Positions 38,761 to 47,063 of a stretch of DNA of 64,000 nt are shown one piece after another (the first letter of the stretch is position 1; every line of letters begins with the position of its first letter). Source of the stretch: Flavobacterium acetivorans (GTDB taxonomy: Bacteria > Bacteroidota > Bacteroidia > Flavobacteriales > Flavobacteriaceae). The translations under genes and the position numbers were made by a program. The notes under the pieces were generated by a model that was given only the letters and a program-made list of their open reading frames with translations, was not told the DNA's origin and ran no database searches. Location: NCBI RefSeq assembly GCF_020911885.1, contig NZ_CP087132.1, positions 1,240,001-1,304,000 of the forward strand, read 5' to 3'.

Positions 38761-39228
38761 ATGAATCATAATATTGATAAATACATTAGTGACAAGATTT
38801 CAGAATTAAAATGGCAGGATAAACAACTATCCGAAATTTCTGGGTTATCAAAAGGACAAGTTAGCAAACTAAAAAATGGTTCAGTATCAAAATTATCTGC
38901 TCAAACCTTTTATTTAATTGTAAAAGCTTTTAATGATTCTATAGATAATGCAACTAGAATTGTATTCCTAAATCAGAAATTCGATTTAAATAAATGGATT
39001 CCTAAAGAGCGTAATGAATTTGGGAAAATAATGTCTAAATACGAGAATATCACAAATTCGCTAGAAGAAATTTCAGCTAAAACTGGAATTAATGAAATAA
39101 GATTAAGTGAATTGTATTATAGAAAAGGAGCTTTAGATGCCTATGAATTACTATTTATTGAAAAAGCTATCGGAAAGAAGCCAGGGGAATTATTTGAGGA
39201 GTTTTATGGAAAAAATATTTTGTTTTGA
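38761..39228 (+). CDS. XRE-like regulator with two helix-turn-helix segments
   Basis: This 155-residue protein has an N-terminal XRE-like domain (QLSEISGLSKGQVSKLKNG) and a second, weaker helix-turn-helix near residues 100-150 (LEEISAKTGINEIRLSELYY). It lies 78 bp before a protein with a HEPN-like motif on the same strand, which suggests an antitoxin-like or regulatory role. No ligand domain is seen. Confidence 0.65.
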   Translation: MNHNIDKYISDKISELKWQDKQLSEISGLSKGQVSKLKNGSVSKLSAQTFYLIVKAFNDSIDNATRIVFLNQKFDLNKWIPKERNEFGKIMSKYENITNSLEEISAKTGINEIRLSELYYRKGALDAYELLFIEKAIGKKPGELFEEFYGKNILF

Positions 39229-39306
39229 GAGGACAAAAAATGATTGAGACTATATAAATGATATATAAAAATACGTAAAGGGAAAGATTTAAAAAAGAAT
39301 ATTACT

Positions 39307-39726
39307 ATGTACGAAGAATATAGCCGACAAGCATTGCCTTCAAAAAGATATAGAGAATTGCTAGGTTCTGCAATCTGTGTGTTTAATTCTAATAATCAAT
39401 TTATTATCGAAAATATTTTGAGAATAGACGACTCGAATTACAATTGGTATGAACTAATAGATAAAACTTCCGGAGATTTGTCGCAGCCTGTGAAAGAAAC
39501 CATTACTAAAAATTCCGACACGAAAATTGCAGTATTATTTTCATCGGTAATTGGCAAAAGAAACCGAATAATTCATAGTTTTCAGATAACTGAAAATAAC
39601 GAACAGGTACTTAGAACCAAGACAAAAAATAATGAGCAGTTCACTATTACAGAATCATCTTTACTAGAGTTTATAAAAGACAATGAAAATTTGTCGTTAA
39701 TGTTGCATCAATTAAGAGGTCATTGA
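39307..39726 (+). CDS. hypothetical protein with HEPN-like RNase motif
   Basis: I recall this 139-residue family from Flavobacteriia but know no function. GKRNRIIHSF (R85, N86, H90) matches the Rx4H motif with asparagine after the arginine that marks HEPN ribonucleases. The helical bundle around it is less clear, since the first half is beta-rich (SAICVFNSNNQFIIENIL). Together with the XRE gene upstream it could be a toxin-antitoxin-like pair. Confidence 0.5.
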   Translation: MYEEYSRQALPSKRYRELLGSAICVFNSNNQFIIENILRIDDSNYNWYELIDKTSGDLSQPVKETITKNSDTKIAVLFSSVIGKRNRIIHSFQITENNEQVLRTKTKNNEQFTITESSLLEFIKDNENLSLMLHQLRGH

Positions 39727-40173
39727 CTTTGAAAGGGATTGGAAGAATAGTAAATACACGAACGGCTAACAGGCTCCCAGCTCTCCGAAGTGTTCCATAA
39801 AAAATAAACATTCTTAAAAATCTAGGGCGCTGTGCGAAGTCTCCTGACTTCGTATCCCGCTCCACTAAGTGTTCGTCTCTACGCTAGGCAAATGTTTCAT
39901 GCATTTTCTTTAAAATACCCTTAAAAGCCGCAAGAATAATGAAATTCTCCTGACTGTTTGCGTGAATGTTTTTAAAACTCAATGAAGGTATTGCGTCTTC
40001 TAAACTTGAAAAACGCATTTGTTGGTGGCAAATTCCGCTGATGTGTTGCTTTCTTAAAAATAAGAATAATCTTCTTTTTACACAAGTATTTTGTTATATT
40101 TGGTGGTAATACAACGGAGGTTATTTCACAGACTGACGTTATGCCTTCTACTAAAAAAACTAACGACAAAAAA
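39727..40173. other. intergenic region with REP copy and promoter
   Basis: It holds a solitary REP element (39777-39857), about 230 bp without recognisable content, a -7 box TATATTTG (40095-40102) and a GTTATGC core-like site (40138-40144) of the kind seen at the attC-like element downstream. The ATG at 40141 is part of that core-like site. Confidence 0.5.
39777..39857 (+). repeat. solitary REP element
   Basis: This copy starts CCAGCTCTCCGAAGTGTTCC and ends with the hairpin CGAAGTC-TCCT-GACTTCG. It is nearly identical to the third REP beside the RAYT gene (47905-47985), about 8 kb away. Confidence 0.85.
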
Positions 40174-40719
40174 ATGAGTAAAGAAAAATATGAGTTAATT
40201 CAAAAAATGAATGAAATAATTGAAAAACCAGCAGGAAAACAAGCTATTAGATTTATATTAAATTCGCTTGGTTCAGTTCCAGTTGTTGGAGGAATGATTT
40301 CAGCTACTGGTTCCGTTTGGAGTGAAAAAGAACAACAAGAATATAATCAAGTATTAGCTGAATGGGCAAATAAGACTGAATCCGATTTAAAAGATATTTT
40401 AGTAAATATTGAAAATTTATTACAGACACCTACCAAAACAAAAATGACCCTGCTGATTGGTGAAATTATTGGAAATGATAATGCTGAAAAGTTTTTAGAG
40501 AAAAGCAATTCTCAAATCCCATTGGTTTTAAACAATCAAACTATCAATGAATTACAACCATTTATTGAAATTCAATGGATATCCATTAAATCAACTGGAG
40601 CTACTTGTTCAATGGGAGCAGGAAATCGAGTAGGTAATCACTTCGAAGAACTGAAAAGACCATATGGAATGGGTACTGGTTTTGTACTCACTTTAAACGA
40701 ATCTTATTTTATAGATTAA
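40174..40719 (+). CDS. hypothetical cassette protein with glycine-rich hydrophobic segment
   Basis: I do not recognise this protein of about 181 residues. Near residues 30-50 it has a glycine-rich hydrophobic stretch (ILNSLGSVPVVGGMISATGS) like a membrane-inserting hairpin, then a coiled helical part and a beta-rich end (GMGTGFVLTLNES). I start at the ATG at 40174, because the upstream ATG (40141) lies in a recombination-core-like sequence. The gene sits alone between a core-like site and an attC-like palindrome, as in an integron cassette. Confidence 0.55.
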   Translation: MSKEKYELIQKMNEIIEKPAGKQAIRFILNSLGSVPVVGGMISATGSVWSEKEQQEYNQVLAEWANKTESDLKDILVNIENLLQTPTKTKMTLLIGEIIGNDNAEKFLEKSNSQIPLVLNNQTINELQPFIEIQWISIKSTGATCSMGAGNRVGNHFEELKRPYGMGTGFVLTLNESYFID

Positions 40720-40740
40720 TCTTAGAGATGAAAAGTATAA

Positions 40741-40866
40741 GGCATAACAGCCATTTAGCGAGATTGTGGGTTTAGTGGAATTACCGTTTCGCATCAAGTT
40801 TTCGTTAAGCCGAAAATTGAAAGGTTACGAATTTCCAGCCATCTCAAAGCAGCAAACCGTTATGCG
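40741..40866 (+). repeat. attC-like integron recombination site
   Basis: The ends GCATAAC (40742) and GTTATGC (40859) are inverse core-type sequences. Between them lies an imperfect palindrome (GAGAT/ATCTC, GGAATT/AATTTCC, centre TTTTCG/CGAAAA) of about 125 bp with unpaired bases. This is the architecture of attC sites. No integrase gene is in the window. Confidence 0.5.
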
Positions 40867-40898
40867 TCAGCTTAAACGAAAATTACTCAAAAGAAGAA

Positions 40899-41246
40899 AT
40901 GGGACATAAAAGTGTTTGTTTAGAATGTAGAAAATCATTAAATAGGGAAATTGACAGTAATTCTGAGAGAATTTATCCATGCTCTGAATGTGGAAAACCT
41001 ATGACACTTTTGCCACACAGATTCAAACCGCCTAAAAAAACTGAAGACAAAAAATGGGAAACTGTAAATTTTCTAATTGAACATGGTTTTTACTATCAAC
41101 ATGTTTATGAAAATGTTGAAGTCAAAAAAAGTGGAATCATAGTTTATGAAAATTACGCAAAATATCCAGAAAACATAAAAGATGCAAAAGAGTTTGTCGA
41201 AAAATATAAAGATCAAGCTCGAATCTATAAATATAAAACAGGTTAG
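40899..41246 (+). CDS. hypothetical zinc-ribbon protein
   Basis: This 115-residue protein starts with a zinc ribbon: CLEC (residues 7-10) and CSEC (about 28-31). The rest is basic and contains ETVNFLIEHGFYYQHVYENV. It directly follows the attC-like site and could be a single-gene cassette. Function unknown. Confidence 0.55.
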   Translation: MGHKSVCLECRKSLNREIDSNSERIYPCSECGKPMTLLPHRFKPPKKTEDKKWETVNFLIEHGFYYQHVYENVEVKKSGIIVYENYAKYPENIKDAKEFVEKYKDQARIYKYKTG

Positions 41247-41387
41247 ATTTTATTATAATGCAGAAATTCAAATCACTGGTTTGATGAAAGTAAAATTTAT
41301 TTATTGAGCAAATATTTATGTTAGTTTAATTGACGTGACAGTGTAACGACAATTAAAAAATAGAAATGGAATTTTAAAACAAATAAT

Positions 41388-42362
41388 ATGGAACAACAAA
41401 CGACAACCGTTTTAAATGCAAATGCTTTAGAGTTGCATTATTGGTTTAACGATAACTCGCACACAATGAATGCTTTTGTTCAGAATAAGTGTGAATTGGA
41501 GTTCCTTGGTATTATTAATGAAATTGCAACTACTTTCGGTGCAGAAATAATAATTGAAACAGAACCTTTTGGTGATGGTGGTTTGATACGTTGGTTTAGA
41601 ATAAAAACCAAATTAAATGAAAAATCATCTGTTTTAAAAGTTGCTATTGTAACTGCATTAGCCACAACAATATTAGTTACCCCTCTAAATACTGTTGTAA
41701 CAAAAGCTACAGAAAAATTAATTGAAAAGGCATTTGAAGATGAAGAAAAAACTAATCGTGCTACCGAAAAAGAAAAACTTGAACTCGAAGAATTAAAACT
41801 CAATGTAGAGCTCAAAAGACAGTTGTTACATAAAAACACTGTAATCAGTAAAAAGAAATCCAATTTTTATGAAATATTAGACAGATATCCAAAAGTCACT
41901 CAGGTTTCAATTGCTATTCAGGATAAAGACAAAAAACGTGTTTCCGAAGAAAATTTTGTTCGAAAAGAAAATTTCAAAGAATTTATTTTAGTTACTGATA
42001 AACTAGAACCTGATTATATTGACAATGCAATTATTGAAATTATTTCCCCAGTACTAAAAAAAGGAGATTACAAATGGAGAGGTATTTACAATGGAGAAAC
42101 CGTTTCTTTTACAATGAAATCCAATGAATTTAAAACATTAGTTCAAACTGGTAAAATTGAATTCAAAAATGGTTCTTCAATAAATTGTTTACTAAAAATA
42201 GACAAGAAGATGAACAACGAAGGCATTGAACAAATCTCTAACTATACCATAAAAAGAGTGAATAATTATTTTGAAAATGACAAACCTATTGAAACTCCAG
42301 AAGGTAAAAATTATAGACAAAAACGAGAAGCTGACGAATCTCAATATGGAATGTTTGATTAA
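41388..42362 (+). CDS. hypothetical membrane protein with coiled coil
   Basis: I do not recognise this 324-residue protein. An N-terminal domain (about 1-75) is followed by one membrane helix (VLKVAIVTALATTILVTPL), a charged coiled coil (about 105-150, EKEKLELEELKLNVELKRQL) and a beta-rich C-terminal domain (about 160-300). It lies 90 bp before the PHP-ATPase gene on the same strand. It could be the membrane-acting partner of that module. Confidence 0.55.
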   Translation: MEQQTTTVLNANALELHYWFNDNSHTMNAFVQNKCELEFLGIINEIATTFGAEIIIETEPFGDGGLIRWFRIKTKLNEKSSVLKVAIVTALATTILVTPLNTVVTKATEKLIEKAFEDEEKTNRATEKEKLELEELKLNVELKRQLLHKNTVISKKKSNFYEILDRYPKVTQVSIAIQDKDKKRVSEENFVRKENFKEFILVTDKLEPDYIDNAIIEIISPVLKKGDYKWRGIYNGETVSFTMKSNEFKTLVQTGKIEFKNGSSINCLLKIDKKMNNEGIEQISNYTIKRVNNYFENDKPIETPEGKNYRQKREADESQYGMFD

Positions 42363-42452
42363 AATGTGTGATTTTGGTTAGCTGTGACTTTTATCTTTTT
42401 TGGTAAAATTTAAAAAGAACGATAACCATATAAAATTAAAAAGGAACTAATT

Positions 42453-44855
42453 ATGAGTTATTCAGATTGGCAGAAAATAGATCTCCATATCCACACAGAT
42501 TGGAGTAGAAAAACAAAGGAAAATGATTATAACGGAAGTTTTTGTGTTGATATTCTCAAACAAAAGCTAAAAGAGAGTCGTGTTAATATTTTTTCCCTAA
42601 CCGATCATAATATAATAAACATTGATGCTTATAATGCCTACTATGATAGTTATAATGAATTTGAGGACCCATTACTTTTACTTGGCGTAGAACTTGACAT
42701 TATTGTTAATACTGAATCAAGAGGTAATAAAACATACCATTCATTAATAATTTTTAATTTCCAGGATAAAACAAACGCAAGAAATATTTCAGATAAATTA
42801 GAAGCCAAATACGCTCAAAATGGTGTTGCAGATAAAGAGAGGGTATTAAATATTGAGGAAGTTATAGAATTATTTCCAGATGATGATTTCTTTTTTATCC
42901 CTCACGCAGGAAATACAAAAAGTATTTTAGATGGCTATAAAGAAAATATTGAAGACGCTCAACGAATGGTTTTGTTAATGCCAAGTGCATTTGAAAAAGT
43001 AGCCGAAAAAGCTAGGCAACAATATAACAAAGGATTTGATAAGGTTTTAGAATATGATTTTAAGAAAAGAAATGATATACCGTATATTAACTTTTCTGAC
43101 AATCATAATATTTCACAATACCCTTGTACCAATAAAGGAGGGCAGGAATGTAAAATCCATCAGTTTTATTATCTAAAAGGAGATAAAAGTTTTGAAGCAT
43201 TGCGTTTAGCTTTTATAGATCCCGAATCTCGAATTAAATCAACACCAGAGCTAGACAAAATTCATCCAACTTTCAACTATATTGAGAAAATAAAGATTAC
43301 TAATAATTCTACATTAACCGATTGTGAGTTAGTATTTAGTCCACACCTAAACACATTAATAGGTGGACGCTCAAGCGGAAAGAGTTTAATGATGACAATT
43401 TTAGGAGATAAAATTGATAGTGTAAATATTGAAAAAAGCAAGTACAATATCGATTACGATCAAATTGAAATTAAGTCAAAATTTGATATGCTTTATGGAG
43501 ACAAAGCATCAATAACAAAAGATGAAATTATCTACATTAAGCAGGGTGATATTGTTAGATATTTTGAAGATAAAAAACTTGAAGATTTAGCAAAAGAAGC
43601 TAATAAAGGGACTCTATATACAGAAACACGTACTCTTTTTACGGAACATAAAAGAACCTTCGATTCTGTAATTGATACCTTTTTAGAAGCATATAGTGTA
43701 AGCTCAAACGATAAAGGACAAAAGTTTATACTTCACGATTCAACTATTGAAAATATATTAAGTGAACATTTTGTATTCAGTTGGAATAAAAACCAGTCGT
43801 TTGAAAAATTAGATCAAACGGATTTGATAACTGAATCAAAAGACTTACTAGATTTAATTAAAGAAAAAAATGCTGAATTAAAAACAAAGACCATTCTTTC
43901 GTTTAAAGAAAATGAGTTAGAAACAATTCAAAATTATGAAGATTTAATCGATGTCAAATTGGAATTAATTTCGAAATTAGATAAACTAAATACAAAAAAA
44001 ATAAGGTTTTTGAATTCAATAGATTCTGTAATCGATAATGTAAATCAACAACTTACCCAAGAAGCAAGAAGTAAGAGTGAATCAAAAAAAATAATTAATG
44101 ATTTAAAAACTAGTATTGAAAAGAAATTTAATTCTAGTGTAATTCTTAAAAAAAGTTCTGATTCTCTTGAAAAATTCAACTATGAATTAAAACAACCTAT
44201 TAAAATTAATGATAGTGTTTCATTAATTCTAGAAATAGAAAAAGTAAATACTATTATTGATTTAATTCTTGAGGGTATTCAAAATGGAGAAAATAATATT
44301 AGTTTATATCTTAATACGTTAGGTCTTCTTAATTCTAAAAAAAGCATTAAAAATTATAGCGATGTAAGTAGTGATTCTCTTCGGAAAAAAATAAGAAAAC
44401 AACTTTCAGATTTATTAAATTCATATGACAATCCAACAGATTATTTGGAATATGAAAATGGTGAAAGTTCCAAAAAGAATAGTCCTGGATATAACTCTGA
44501 AAAATATTTAGAAATAATTTTAAAAAACCCCAAGTCTAAAATTATTTTTATAGATCAACCCGAAGACAATCTTGGGAACAAATTCATTACCGATACATTG
44601 GTAAAACTAATAAGAGAAATTAAATTCAATAAACAAATTTTTTTAGTTACACATAATCCATCAATTGTTGTGTATGGAGATGCTGAAAGCATAATCATAG
44701 CATCAAATCAAAGTAACAAGATTAGCTATAAACAAGTTGTCCTTGAAAATCAAAATGCTCAAAAAGAAATTTGCGGAATACTTGATGGTGGAGAATATAT
44801 CTTCAATATGCGATCTAAAAAATATAACATTAAAAGAATTTTAAAAGATAATTAA
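42453..44855 (+). CDS. PHP-domain/SMC-like ATPase (TrlF-type)
   Basis: This 800-residue protein has an N-terminal PHP phosphoesterase domain with metal ligands in DLHIHTDWS (H12, H14), SLTDHN, IPHAGN and NFSDNHN. An ABC/SMC-type ATPase follows, with Walker A LIGGRSSGKS (about 302-311), a helical coiled-coil middle (about 400-640) and Walker B KIIFIDQPEDNLG (about 694-706), then FLVTHNPS. This layout resembles TrlF-type and other PHP-ATPase proteins found in defence neighbourhoods. It may sense DNA or RNA ends and cut nucleic acid or nucleotides. The next gene begins one base after its stop. Confidence 0.8.
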   Translation: MSYSDWQKIDLHIHTDWSRKTKENDYNGSFCVDILKQKLKESRVNIFSLTDHNIINIDAYNAYYDSYNEFEDPLLLLGVELDIIVNTESRGNKTYHSLIIFNFQDKTNARNISDKLEAKYAQNGVADKERVLNIEEVIELFPDDDFFFIPHAGNTKSILDGYKENIEDAQRMVLLMPSAFEKVAEKARQQYNKGFDKVLEYDFKKRNDIPYINFSDNHNISQYPCTNKGGQECKIHQFYYLKGDKSFEALRLAFIDPESRIKSTPELDKIHPTFNYIEKIKITNNSTLTDCELVFSPHLNTLIGGRSSGKSLMMTILGDKIDSVNIEKSKYNIDYDQIEIKSKFDMLYGDKASITKDEIIYIKQGDIVRYFEDKKLEDLAKEANKGTLYTETRTLFTEHKRTFDSVIDTFLEAYSVSSNDKGQKFILHDSTIENILSEHFVFSWNKNQSFEKLDQTDLITESKDLLDLIKEKNAELKTKTILSFKENELETIQNYEDLIDVKLELISKLDKLNTKKIRFLNSIDSVIDNVNQQLTQEARSKSESKKIINDLKTSIEKKFNSSVILKKSSDSLEKFNYELKQPIKINDSVSLILEIEKVNTIIDLILEGIQNGENNISLYLNTLGLLNSKKSIKNYSDVSSDSLRKKIRKQLSDLLNSYDNPTDYLEYENGESSKKNSPGYNSEKYLEIILKNPKSKIIFIDQPEDNLGNKFITDTLVKLIREIKFNKQIFLVTHNPSIVVYGDAESIIIASNQSNKISYKQVVLENQNAQKEICGILDGGEYIFNMRSKKYNIKRILKDN

Positions 44856-44856
44856 A

Positions 44857-45180
44857 ATGACAGAAAAAATAGCTAAAATATTGTTTGATGAAGATGCTAA
44901 CATTATTACAATTGAGGGTATCGGTTCTAATAATCTTCAAATTGATTACACTGGCGATATTGACTTTACTAATTTAGTAGAAACTTTAACCGTTTTTATT
45001 GAAGAAAACATTTTCATTAAAATTGAAAACACTGATGATTTACCTAAAGAAGGGAAAATTTCAATTGTTTTGGAAACAATAATCGAAATTATTAAAAAAT
45101 ATAATGAAAGCATATCAACAATTGAATCAACTGGACAAGTTTCTTTAGTTAATGACGATGATGATGATTTACCTTTTTAA
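44857..45180 (+). CDS. small acidic protein with SSB-type C-terminal tail
   Basis: This 107-residue protein is strongly acidic and ends in DDDDDLPF. The acidic run followed by a hydrophobic-Pro-Phe end is the tail with which bacterial single-stranded DNA-binding proteins (ending DDDIPF or DDLPF) recruit partners such as RecO, RecQ and PriA. No OB fold is evident in the rest (FDEDANIITIEGIGSNNLQI is a short beta motif). The gene starts one base after the PHP-ATPase stop, so they are translationally coupled. It may let the module mimic or compete with SSB. Confidence 0.7.
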   Translation: MTEKIAKILFDEDANIITIEGIGSNNLQIDYTGDIDFTNLVETLTVFIEENIFIKIENTDDLPKEGKISIVLETIIEIIKKYNESISTIESTGQVSLVNDDDDDLPF

Positions 45181-45232
45181 TTTTAAAATTTTAAAAACAA
45201 TAAACCCAGCATTAACAATTCACCTGTAAATA

Positions 45233-45364
45233 ATGAGTGAGATACAAAACATAGAATGGAAATAAAGTTGGCACGAGGTTATTGAATATGATAATAAAGA
45301 ATTGGAAGAATTAATACTAGCAAGAATGACAAAAGTTGGAGCTGAAATTTCGCAAACATTATGA
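45233..45364 (+). pseudogene. AlbA_2/Schlafen-type ATPase gene remnant
   Basis: The reading MSEIQNIEWK, stop, SWHEV matches the usual start of AlbA_2-domain proteins (EWKxSW). A TAA replaces one codon and nearly all of the gene is missing. The frame then runs to a stop overlapping the next ATG. Confidence 0.45.
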
Positions 45365-46026
45365 ACTATATTCACAGTACATCAGCTTTTCATGTAACTT
45401 GGTTAAGTAGATTAAATCCTATTTACAGAATTTTAAGTGATATTCAATATGTTGAAGATTTTTTTGAGAATGGAAATATTTATCTATCAAGTTTTAAAAA
45501 TTTTAAAAAATATGAAGATGAAATGCAAGGTGATAGAACTGAAGGACAAAATCTAGTTGGTGGATTTAATGGCAAAGACGCTAGCCAATATGTATCTTAT
45601 GAAGGTGGGATCAACGCTTATGTACTGTGTGCTACAAATTCTTTGAATGAAAATGTAATTAAGGATTTTAAAGGTATAGGTGCAATAAAAATAAAAGATT
45701 CAGTAAATTTTGGTAAAGAAATAGCAAGGAAATTACCTTTTGTTAATACCGGTATTGAAGGAGATTGTATATATGGAGATTCTAAAGTTCAAATATTAGA
45801 AAATGAACAGAATAAAGCATTTCATGATATTGACTTTGAAAATCCAATTATAATGAAAGAGGAATTATCCCAAATAACTTTAGGGGTTGAAATGTTTATG
45901 AAGCATAAAAAATATGAGCATCAACAAGAACACAGGTTATTATGGTTTTCTGAAGTTCAAATTGAAAACGGAATAGTTATTCATTGTCCCGAGGCAATTA
46001 AATATTGTGATAAAATAATTTTTTGA
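45361..46026 (+). CDS. DUF2971-like protein
   Basis: This 221-residue protein has the features of the DUF2971 family: an early YIHSTSAFHVTWLSRL-type helix, LSSFKNFKKYEDEMQGDR, and the conserved end segment KKYEHQQEHRLLWF. Members are of unknown biochemistry and often lie in defence islands. The next gene, a truncated SIR2-like gene, follows within 15 bp, so the two were probably an operon. Confidence 0.6.
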   Translation: MNYIHSTSAFHVTWLSRLNPIYRILSDIQYVEDFFENGNIYLSSFKNFKKYEDEMQGDRTEGQNLVGGFNGKDASQYVSYEGGINAYVLCATNSLNENVIKDFKGIGAIKIKDSVNFGKEIARKLPFVNTGIEGDCIYGDSKVQILENEQNKAFHDIDFENPIIMKEELSQITLGVEMFMKHKKYEHQQEHRLLWFSEVQIENGIVIHCPEAIKYCDKIIF

Positions 46027-46040
46027 AAGGCATATTTGAA

Positions 46041-46380
46041 ATGGAAGAAATAAAAGAAACAGTATTTACAGTAATTCAAAATTATCTAAAAACACCTCCT
46101 GTAATTATCTGGGGCTCTGGAGCAACAGTCCCTTTTGGACTTCCTAGTATGAATACACTAAATGGGATTTTAAAAAATAATATTTCAGAGTTTGATAAAG
46201 ATTGTGAGAATCTTGAAGTTGAACTTGGTAAAGAAAAGTATCATGAAGTAAGGTTTGAAATACAAGATGTCATAGGCGGAAAAGATAATGTTTGTGGTCA
46301 AGCCCAAAAATCACAAACAGGGACGCCAGGAAATTACAAAATAGTATCTAAAGGATTAATTTATATAAAAAAAGCTGGCT
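46041..46380 (+). pseudogene. truncated SIR2-like gene fused to foreign sequence
   Basis: From the ATG at 46041 it reads the N-terminal part of a defence-type SIR2 NADase (PPVIIWGSGATVPFGLPSMN, the glycine-rich NAD-binding start). After about 70-80 residues similarity to SIR2 seems to stop and a different, frame-shifted sequence follows, which leads into an RHS toxin end. The catalytic half is lost, so it should be inactive. Confidence 0.55.
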
Positions 46381-46383
46381 TTA

Positions 46384-46587
46384 AACAGTGTAAGACACGT
46401 TGCAAGTGTAGCTGGTCACGAATTAAATCACGTTGCAGATTATATAAGCGGTAATTATGCTGGATGGCTAAATCAATTCGGAAATAATGCCCGTTCAGAA
46501 GTTAAGGCTTATGGTTGGGAACAAAGTATGGGTTCTCCTTACTTTAATAGTCAGATGTATAATCAATTTTTAAATCTAACTAAATGA
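46384..46587 (+). pseudogene. RHS-type toxin C-terminal remnant, HExxH domain
   Basis: In this frame the DNA encodes VASVAGHELNHVADYISGNY, then SEVKAYGWEQSM, and a stop. HELNH is an HExxH zinc-peptidase motif, and the segment resembles the end of a polymorphic RHS toxin. The frame is closed upstream (stop at 46366). The stop overlaps the ATG of the next gene (ATGA), as in toxin-immunity pairs. Confidence 0.55.
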
Positions 46588-46616
46588 TGAAAACTAACCT
46601 AAAAACTGATATGTTT

Positions 46617-47063
46617 ATGAAAAAGATATTCTTTCTTTTCTTATTAGCATCAAATATTTCATTTAGTCAAAATCAAATGGGAGATATTCAAAAAAAATAT
46701 TACACATTTTGTCATAGTGATTTAACTCCTCTTGAAAAAATTGAAGCATATCCTAATTTTCCATTAGAAGATTTATGTTCTATAAAATCTTGTTTTAGAA
46801 GTATTAGTTATGAAGAAATAAATAAAGTGATTTACAAAAGATTAATTGAACTTGCGATTAAAAATTTTAATGACGGAATATTACTTTACCTAATAGATGG
46901 AAAAAAAAGTGTAAAATGTGCCGACAAAAAAAATCTAAATATAGATGATGATAATGGATTTATATACATCAGTATAGATGATTTTATCAATGCAAAGGAA
47001 ATAACTATTGCAAAAGAACTTTATAATAATGAGACAAAAAAACTTCTCAAAAATAAAATGTAG
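46617..47063 (+). CDS. possible immunity protein, secreted
   Basis: This protein of about 148 residues has a clear signal peptide (KKIFFLFLLASNISFSQ) when started at the ATG at 46617. Earlier ATGs at 46584 and 46587 overlap the stop of the toxin remnant and would add 10-11 residues. It has six cysteines and a helical C-terminus. Directly following a toxin end, it is most likely the cognate periplasmic immunity protein. It is preserved although the toxin is broken. Confidence 0.55.
   Translation: MKKIFFLFLLASNISFSQNQMGDIQKKYYTFCHSDLTPLEKIEAYPNFPLEDLCSIKSCFRSISYEEINKVIYKRLIELAIKNFNDGILLYLIDGKKSVKCADKKNLNIDDDNGFIYISIDDFINAKEITIAKELYNNETKKLLKNKM

What the first reader, a model, noticed from the sequence alone, without database searches (positions are those of the whole stretch)
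44857..45180. Small acidic protein with an SSB-like tail coupled to a PHP-ATPase
The protein ends in DDDDDLPF, the type of tip by which SSB proteins recruit RecO, RecQ, PriA and others. No OB fold is seen, and the gene starts one base after the stop of an 800-residue PHP-SMC-type ATPase. An SSB mimic linked to such an ATPase could tether the module to host or phage replication forks, or serve as bait for phage proteins that target SSB. I know of no described defence system with this arrangement.
Basis: partly seen in the sequence, partly recalled or inferred. Interest (0 to 1): 0.8.

Follow-up and report, generated by a model that had tools for sequence, protein, structure and literature searches.

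The report
SSB-tailed partner of PHP-SMC ATPase
A tiny acidic protein, made together with a large DNA-processing motor protein, ends in the same docking tag that bacteria use on their single-stranded-DNA binding protein, which suggests a way for this putative virus-defence module to borrow the cell's own DNA-repair enzymes.

Summary
The 107-aa protein (44857-45180) ends DDDDDLPF and starts one base after the stop of an 800-aa PHP-SMC-type ATPase. It has no SSB match; its last 15 residues are modelled without structure.
The tip is not chance. In this genome three long ORFs end in DLPF: SSB, a DUF3127 protein and this one. In 12 relatives (27 loci read of 61 matches) 13 ORFs of 60 aa or more end so, all SSB or DUF3127.
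The small gene is its own family, without a model in Pfam, PADLOC or NCBIfam, and abuts a TrlF-like ATPase in 16 of 16 loci measured. 56 of 92 distinct members end [LIV]PF; but of 18 loci found through the ATPase only 6 do, 2 have a near-tip, 2 end acidic-Phe and 8 have none. The tail is recurrent, not obligatory.
Five of 18 loci lie beside type I or III restriction genes; the nearest characterised relative, Ppl, is an anti-phage exonuclease. Best reading: a partner subunit that recruits SSB-interacting enzymes to a nuclease. Binding and defence are untested.

The parts
42453..44855 (+). TrlF-like PHP-SMC ATPase, 800 aa
   Evidence: NCBIfam TrlF 5.7e-76 (257 bits, cutoff 350), Spaf_1101 3.9e-25, Ppl 4.1e-18; PADLOC Ppl 1.4e-13, PDC-M49A 1.4e-8; 14 homologues at 42-51% identity
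42453..43232 (+). PHP phosphoesterase-type N-terminal domain (about residues 1-260)
   Evidence: D10, H12, H14, D51, H52, E80, H96, H151, D216, H218 invariant in 15 of 15 aligned sequences; Pfam PHP 9.6e-5 in homologue L018, 23.2 bits under its cutoff of 26.4; naming the residues as the metal site is recalled knowledge
43272..44810 (+). SMC/Rad50-type ATPase head with helical insert (about residues 274-786)
44857..45180 (+). small acidic partner, 107 aa, own family
   Evidence: no family above noise in Pfam, PADLOC or NCBIfam (NCBIfam for P0001 only)
44857..45132 (+). folded core of the partner (residues 1-92), beta-beta-beta-alpha-beta-alpha by prediction
   Evidence: AlphaFold2 with 50 sequences, mean pLDDT 81.9; weak fold matches only
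45133..45153 (+). short disordered linker (residues 93-99)
   Evidence: pLDDT under 50 at residues 93-102; number of residues after N83 runs from 18 to 36 in tip-bearing members
45154..45177 (+). SSB-type tip DDDDDLPF (codons 100-107)
   Evidence: recurrent end of the family; shared with an SSB of the genome; genomic control

Best explanation
The two genes form one module: a TrlF-like PHP-SMC ATPase, probably a nuclease that acts on DNA ends or single-stranded DNA, and a dedicated small partner. The partner's core holds on to the ATPase; its disordered C-terminus carries an SSB-type tip that docks into the SSB-tail pocket of host DNA-processing enzymes (RecO, RecQ, RecJ, RecG, PriA and the like). 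This lets the module collect SSB-interacting enzymes, or be placed where they work, at ends and gaps left by restriction or phage replication. SHOWN (computed): the gene pair, the tip and its recurrence in the family, the acidic run before it against a drifting linker, its restriction to SSB/DUF3127 proteins in the other loci read, predicted disorder, the SMC fold, restriction-gene context. INFERRED: complex formation, docking to an SSB-interacting protein, nuclease activity, anti-phage role.
For: Pair: gap -17 to +9 nt in 16 of 16 loci measured. Tip: 56 of 92 distinct members end [LIV]PF, 73 end in Phe; in 28 cluster representatives chosen by that end, -3 is Leu in 26, -4 and -5 acidic in 26 each, with no conserved letter in the linker. 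DLPF ends only SSB, DUF3127 and this protein among long ORFs of the genome; 13 of 13 such ORFs in 27 loci of relatives are SSB or DUF3127. Tip also in Cerasicoccus (DDDDIPF, L009) and in a far member on a viral contig (DADVPF, L068). At least one SSB ends [LIV]PF in 17 of 18 genomes. RecO present. Restriction context L009, L015, L023, L024 (type I), L068 (type III). Ppl, a PHP-NTPase, is described as a 3'-5' ssDNA exonuclease activated by 3' ends and nucleotide depletion (PMC12904381, passages). SSB-Ct pockets read the terminal Phe, its carboxylate and the Asp residues (PMC10164576, abstract and introduction).
Against: 8 of 18 ATPase-anchored loci have no tip and two have residues after it (L020 DLPFDF, L122 DPFAI), which should spoil a carboxylate-reading pocket. 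The tip state changes at least 14 times on a poorly resolved tree (10 if near-tips count as tips). Tip presence does not track restriction context (with tip L009, L024, L068; without L015, L023). The pair is rare and patchy (5 of 299 genomes of the family by ATPase; the partner query itself found only the window copy there). No complex was modelled, and no binding or phage data exist.
Confidence: 0.5

Rival explanations
1. The tip is a tethered pseudo-ligand. The ATPase (or another part of the complex) has its own SSB-tail pocket; the partner's tip sits in it and keeps the nuclease quiet until SSB-coated DNA, of phage or host, competes it off. The module is then an SSB or ssDNA sensor.
For: Several defence systems respond to phage SSB (AbpAB with Gp32, and Retron-Eco8, Hachiman, ShosTA, Nhi, Hna as listed in PMC10732053, abstract; Hna stimulation, PMC13381803, passages; table in PMC12904381, passages). 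The partner abuts the ATPase gene in 16 of 16 loci measured.
Against: Loss of an inhibitory tip should be harmful, yet 8 of 18 loci lack it. No pocket was looked for or identified in the ATPase.
Confidence: 0.2
2. Bait or guard: the tip mimics SSB so that a phage protein that attacks SSB-tail interactions, or a hijacked SSB-interacting enzyme, trips the ATPase.
For: Restriction-linked position in 5 of 18 loci resembles guard systems set beside restriction genes such as PrrC (recalled; RloC/PrrC paper PMC2610378 seen only as a search listing). AriA of PARIS is among the sequence and fold relatives of the ATPase.
Against: No phage trigger is known. Bait might be expected to vary under attack, whereas where the tip is present its Leu and two acidic residues hardly vary (26 of 28 each).
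Confidence: 0.12
3. The acidic C-terminus has no partner enzyme: it is an electrostatic or stability element (DNA-mimic-like or degron-like tail), and its LPF end is incidental.
For: The whole family is acidic (median net charge -16), and several tip-less members keep an acidic end.
Against: An electrostatic tail does not need a terminal Phe, yet 73 of 92 distinct members have one and 56 have [LIV]PF; in the proteomes sampled that end is otherwise on SSB and DUF3127 proteins.
Confidence: 0.13

Closest known systems
TrlF of the Photorhabdus temperature restriction locus (trlR-trlF-trlG), NCBIfam NF045780
   Same: PHP + AAA/SMC-type ATPase over most of its length (5.7e-76); a trlG-like SLFN_AlbA_2 + HATPase_c_4 gene follows in relative L023; the paper notes type I M-subunit genes inside the locus on plasmid pYR3 (PMC7554251, passages)
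   Different: Score below the family cutoff (257 against 350 bits); no trlG gene found by Pfam in the ten ORFs scanned at 38761-47063; the two plasmid TrlF loci read have no abutting small gene. In the passages read, no mutation was seen in trlF.
Ppl, single-gene anti-phage PHP-NTPase
   Same: PHP plus ATPase; C-terminal ATPase region alignable
   Different: 64.7 bits against a cutoff of 1000; Ppl is described as a single-gene system (PMC12904381, passages), here a small partner gene abuts
Bacterial SSB (PF00436), SSB-Ct tip
   Same: Disordered linker and acidic [LIV]PF end at the C-terminus
   Different: No PF00436 match; the predicted core is a small alpha/beta domain
DUF3127 proteins of Bacteroidota (PF11325)
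   Same: Small protein with the same DDLPF end
   Different: Different core family; read in 9 of 12 relatives; neighbours not examined
PrrC/RloC-type systems lodged beside type I restriction genes
   Same: ABC/SMC-type ATPase gene within an hsd operon in some loci
   Different: PHP domain instead of an anticodon nuclease (recalled); no hsd gene among the ten window ORFs scanned

Membership tests
TrlF family (NF045780) | score above NCBI's curated cutoff (350 bits) | tested here: not met
   257 bits; six other pair ATPases score 240-306 bits
TrlF family (NF045780) | PHP domain followed by SMC/AAA-type ATPase | tested here: met
   invariant motifs, fold matches for the ATPase part
TrlF family (NF045780) | trlG (AlbA_2/HATPase_c_4) neighbour | tested here: not met
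   none among ten ORFs 38761-47063 scanned with Pfam; present in relative L023
Ppl | score above curated cutoff (1000 bits) | tested here: not met
   64.7 bits
Ppl | 3'-5' ssDNA exonuclease activity gated by nucleotide pools | not testable with these tools
   described in PMC12904381 (passages); not assayed for this protein
SSB | OB-fold core (PF00436) | tested here: not met
   no PF00436 match for P0001 at E 0.1 nor, at E 0.01, for 50 family members
SSB-Ct tip | acidic residues then [LIV]PF at the very C-terminus, after a disordered linker | tested here: met
SSB-Ct tip | binding to an SSB-interacting protein through the Phe pocket | not testable with these tools
   needs binding assays or co-folding
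OB fold (any) | five-stranded OB barrel | tested here: inconclusive
Restriction-linked guard system | gene lies within a restriction-modification operon | tested here: inconclusive
   5 of 18 loci yes (L009, L015, L023, L024, L068); not seen near the window copy (ten ORFs); flanks of several loci are short

The most novel reading that the evidence does not exclude
A defence module that carries its own copy of SSB's docking code: the first dedicated SSB-tip subunit of a PHP-SMC nuclease, used to draw host SSB-interacting repair enzymes onto invader DNA (or to sense them), and switched on and off in evolution by gain and loss of eight residues.
Probability: 0.35. Interest if true: 0.85.

Novelty: new variant of a known kind. 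Interest (0 to 1): 0.62.

Why it matters
Several defence systems are known to respond to phage SSB or to DNA-repair states, but how they plug into the host's repair network is often unknown. A small subunit that displays SSB's own docking tip would give a direct physical link, easy to test with a peptide and a one-residue deletion, and natural homologues with and without the tip give a ready comparison. It also gives a group of little-characterised TrlF-like ATPases a defined partner.

Tried and rejected

Sampling and circularity: the family count comes from profile searches seeded with tip-bearing proteins and may overstate the tip; the ATPase-anchored count (6 of 18, plus 2 near, 2 acidic-Phe) does not depend on it. 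The 28 representatives were chosen by their [LIV]PF end, so F and P there are by definition; only -3 to -5 and the linker are informative. Of 48 clusters, 28 hold a [LIV]PF member, 25 in every member, 27 by strict majority. Dropped before the 18-locus count: L021 and L022 (contig or frame ends before the partner), L025 (degenerate), L004, L005, L119, L121, L124 and L125 (same places as L023, L018, L013, L010, L015, L009), L007 (match over 159 residues only, no abutting small gene), the plasmid TrlF loci, and the other viral loci, most of them end-only matches. Of those, L069 and L070 do have an abutting small gene without a tip; counted, the share with a canonical tip would be 6 of 20. The tree is short (93 columns), quick-method and poorly resolved; its change counts are rough and cannot tell gain from loss. 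The DLPF control used TAA/TAG stops only, kept 27 of 61 matches as loci, and says nothing of genes ending in TGA. Several genomes also hold an SSB paralogue without a tip, the window genome among them. One search missed loci on the minus strand and was replaced.

Papers: the absence of a description of this pair rests on searches of an open-access library only.

Full report
WHAT IS THERE. The ORF at 44857-45180 (+) encodes 107 residues ending DDDDDLPF and begins one base after the TAA of the 800-residue ORF 42453-44855. The protein is strongly acidic (24 acidic, 7 basic residues). It has no match above noise in Pfam, PADLOC or NCBIfam, and 50 aligned members have none in Pfam or PADLOC. AlphaFold2 with the family alignment gives a compact beta-beta-beta-alpha-beta-alpha core (mean pLDDT 81.9), with residues 93-102 under pLDDT 50 and the tip without secondary structure. 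The core has only weak fold matches, so I call it 'not seen to be OB' rather than a named fold.

IS THE TAIL CHANCE? Three tests. First, the genome: the pattern for D-[L/F]-P-F-stop occurs nine times in the 3.56 Mb genome against three for the reversed control. Read in frame, three end an ORF of over 100 aa: an SSB gene (146 aa), a DUF3127 protein (123 aa) and this protein. Second, 12 relatives, TAA/TAG stops only: 61 matches, of which 27 loci were kept and read; 13 end an ORF of at least 60 aa, and all 13 are Pfam SSB (4) or DUF3127 (9); 11 lie in short frames and 3 read DFPF. Third, the family: 73 of 92 distinct members end in Phe, 59 in Pro-Phe, 56 in [LIV]PF. In one representative of each of 28 clusters (80% identity) with a [LIV]PF end, -3 is Leu in 26, -4 and -5 are each acidic in 26, while the stretch before has no conserved letter and the length after N83 runs from 18 to 36 (F and P are by choice there). 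This is the anatomy described for SSB: a poorly conserved disordered linker and a highly conserved tip (PMC10164576, introduction).

HOW GENERAL IS THE TAIL? Profile searches gave, together with loci, 92 distinct members in 48 clusters: 56 sequences end [LIV]PF (28 clusters hold one, 25 in every member), 6 have near-tips such as DDLLF, DDLTF, DPF, QPF or DLPFDF, 11 end in another Phe after acidic or polar residues, and 19 have none. Because those searches began from tip-bearing proteins, the fairer count uses loci found through the ATPase: of 18, six end [LIV]PF (window, L009, L016, L018, L024, L068), two have a near-tip (L020 DDDDLPFDF, L122 DDDPFAI), two end acidic-Phe (L011, L012) and eight have none (L006, L010, L013, L014, L015, L017, L019, L023). 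In L019 (Aquimarina latercula) the stop is followed at once, in frame, by DDLLF and a further stop, so that copy looks recently truncated; I saw no such remnant, by eye, in the other eight loci read that way. On a short, weakly resolved core tree the tip state changes at least 14 times (10 if near-tips are counted as tips). The tail is thus recurrent, but not needed by every member.

THE PARTNER GENE. In 16 of 16 loci measured the small gene overlaps the ATPase gene by up to 17 bases or follows it by up to 9; L006 and L122, read from ORF lists, overlap by 4 and follow by 10. ATPase identity to the window copy in 14 of these is 42-51%; L068 is 30% in its best segment and still has a partner, ending DADVPF. 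Records come from Bacteroidota, Cerasicoccus (Verrucomicrobiota), Desulfobacula, Fibrobacter, Proteiniclasticum (Bacillota) and a viral contig (phylum names recalled). Two plasmid-borne TrlF genes (Sulfitobacter, Listeria welshimeri) have no abutting small gene, so the partner seems to mark a sub-group. For most members known only as proteins the neighbouring gene was not seen.

THE ATPase. It is TrlF-like (NCBIfam 5.7e-76 but 257 bits under a cutoff of 350), with weaker likeness to Spaf_1101 and Ppl. PHP-type and Walker residues are invariant in 15 of 15 aligned sequences. The fold search gives SMC and Rad50 heads first, with JetABC (Wadjet), AriA of PARIS, Lamassu and a retron I-A complex among the hits (VIA). 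TrlF is named from the temperature restriction locus of Photorhabdus, of which I read passages (PMC7554251): a three-gene operon in which no mutation was seen in trlF. The nearest characterised relative is Ppl, which a 2026 review describes as a 3'-5' ssDNA exonuclease with PHP and NTPase domains, activated by 3' ends and nucleotide depletion (PMC12904381, passages).

CONTEXT. L009 and L024 read hsdM-hsdS-ATPase-partner-hsdR. L015 has hsdM-hsdS before and an EcoEI-type hsdR after. L023 has hsdM-hsdS before, a trlG-like gene after, and further on an hsdR-like ORF judged by eye. L068, a contig with Mu-like genes by eye, carries a type III-like mod-res pair before it. So 5 of 18 loci are restriction-linked, with and without the tip; truncated L021 also has hsdM upstream. 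Flanks differ in length, so 5 is a lower bound. The window copy sits beside a PADLOC PDC-S42 gene, a DUF2971-like gene (weak hit) and a truncated SIR2-like ORF, with no hsd gene among the ten ORFs scanned.

HOST SSB. At least one SSB ends [LIV]PF in 17 of 18 genomes examined; the exception is Capnocytophaga (TTPLF). The tipped Bacteroidota SSBs end DLPF or NLPF like the partner tips; the Cerasicoccus SSB ends DVPF, its partner DIPF. Hosts of tip-less partners also have tipped SSBs, and several genomes, this one included, hold a further SSB without a tip. RecO, a known tip reader, is present in the window genome.

MECHANISM. The pieces fit a nuclease module whose small subunit displays SSB's docking code. 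A protein with an SSB tip would bind what SSB's tail binds rather than SSB. The simplest reading is recruitment of an SSB-interacting enzyme, or delivery of the module to where such enzymes gather, at ends made by restriction or at phage forks. The main rival is a tethered pseudo-ligand that SSB displaces, making the module an SSB sensor, a class of trigger reported for other systems (PMC10732053, abstract; PMC13381803, passages). I put 0.5 on recruitment, 0.2 on the pseudo-ligand, 0.12 on bait, 0.13 on a tail without a partner enzyme.

NOVELTY. The ATPase belongs to a known kind. An abutting, uncatalogued partner family with an SSB tip is, as far as my searches of open-access text go, not described. 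I file it as a new variant of a known kind.

Noticed in passing
L059 (window genome C1:1375622) and L126, L127, L129, L131-L134, L144, L151: DUF3127 (PF11325) proteins end in the same DDLPF tip as SSB, here and in 9 of 12 relatives; their link to SSB-interacting proteins seems worth testing.
   Followed up: partly
41388-42362: PADLOC candidate PDC-S42 (2.6e-108) lies 90 bases upstream of the ATPase; NCBIfam calls it LAPAL family (60.6 bits, cutoff 60). Not found in any other locus held.
   Followed up: partly
45361-46026: DUF2971-like protein (weak hit) with an 89% identical copy directly upstream of the ATPase in Flavobacterium yafengii (L013 5308-5973), on the other side of the pair.
   Followed up: partly
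46023-46454: Truncated SIR2-like ORF: PADLOC SIR2 2.8e-34, but only profile positions 1-79 of 318.
   Followed up: no
L011, L012 and proteins P0016, P0017, P0019, P0023, P0025, P0027-P0029, P0040: Partners without LPF but with a terminal Phe after acidic residues (DDF, EDF, DGF, EGF), reminiscent of the end of phage T7 gp2.5 (recalled): possibly a second tip type.
   Followed up: no
L069 7517-7840, L070 7532-7858: Viral contigs with a more distant PHP-ATPase followed by an overlapping 107-108 aa gene without tip, perhaps a far partner family.
   Followed up: no
L068: Contig with Mu-like genes (by eye) carrying a type III-like mod-res pair plus the ATPase and a DADVPF-ended partner, as if cargo.
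   Followed up: partly
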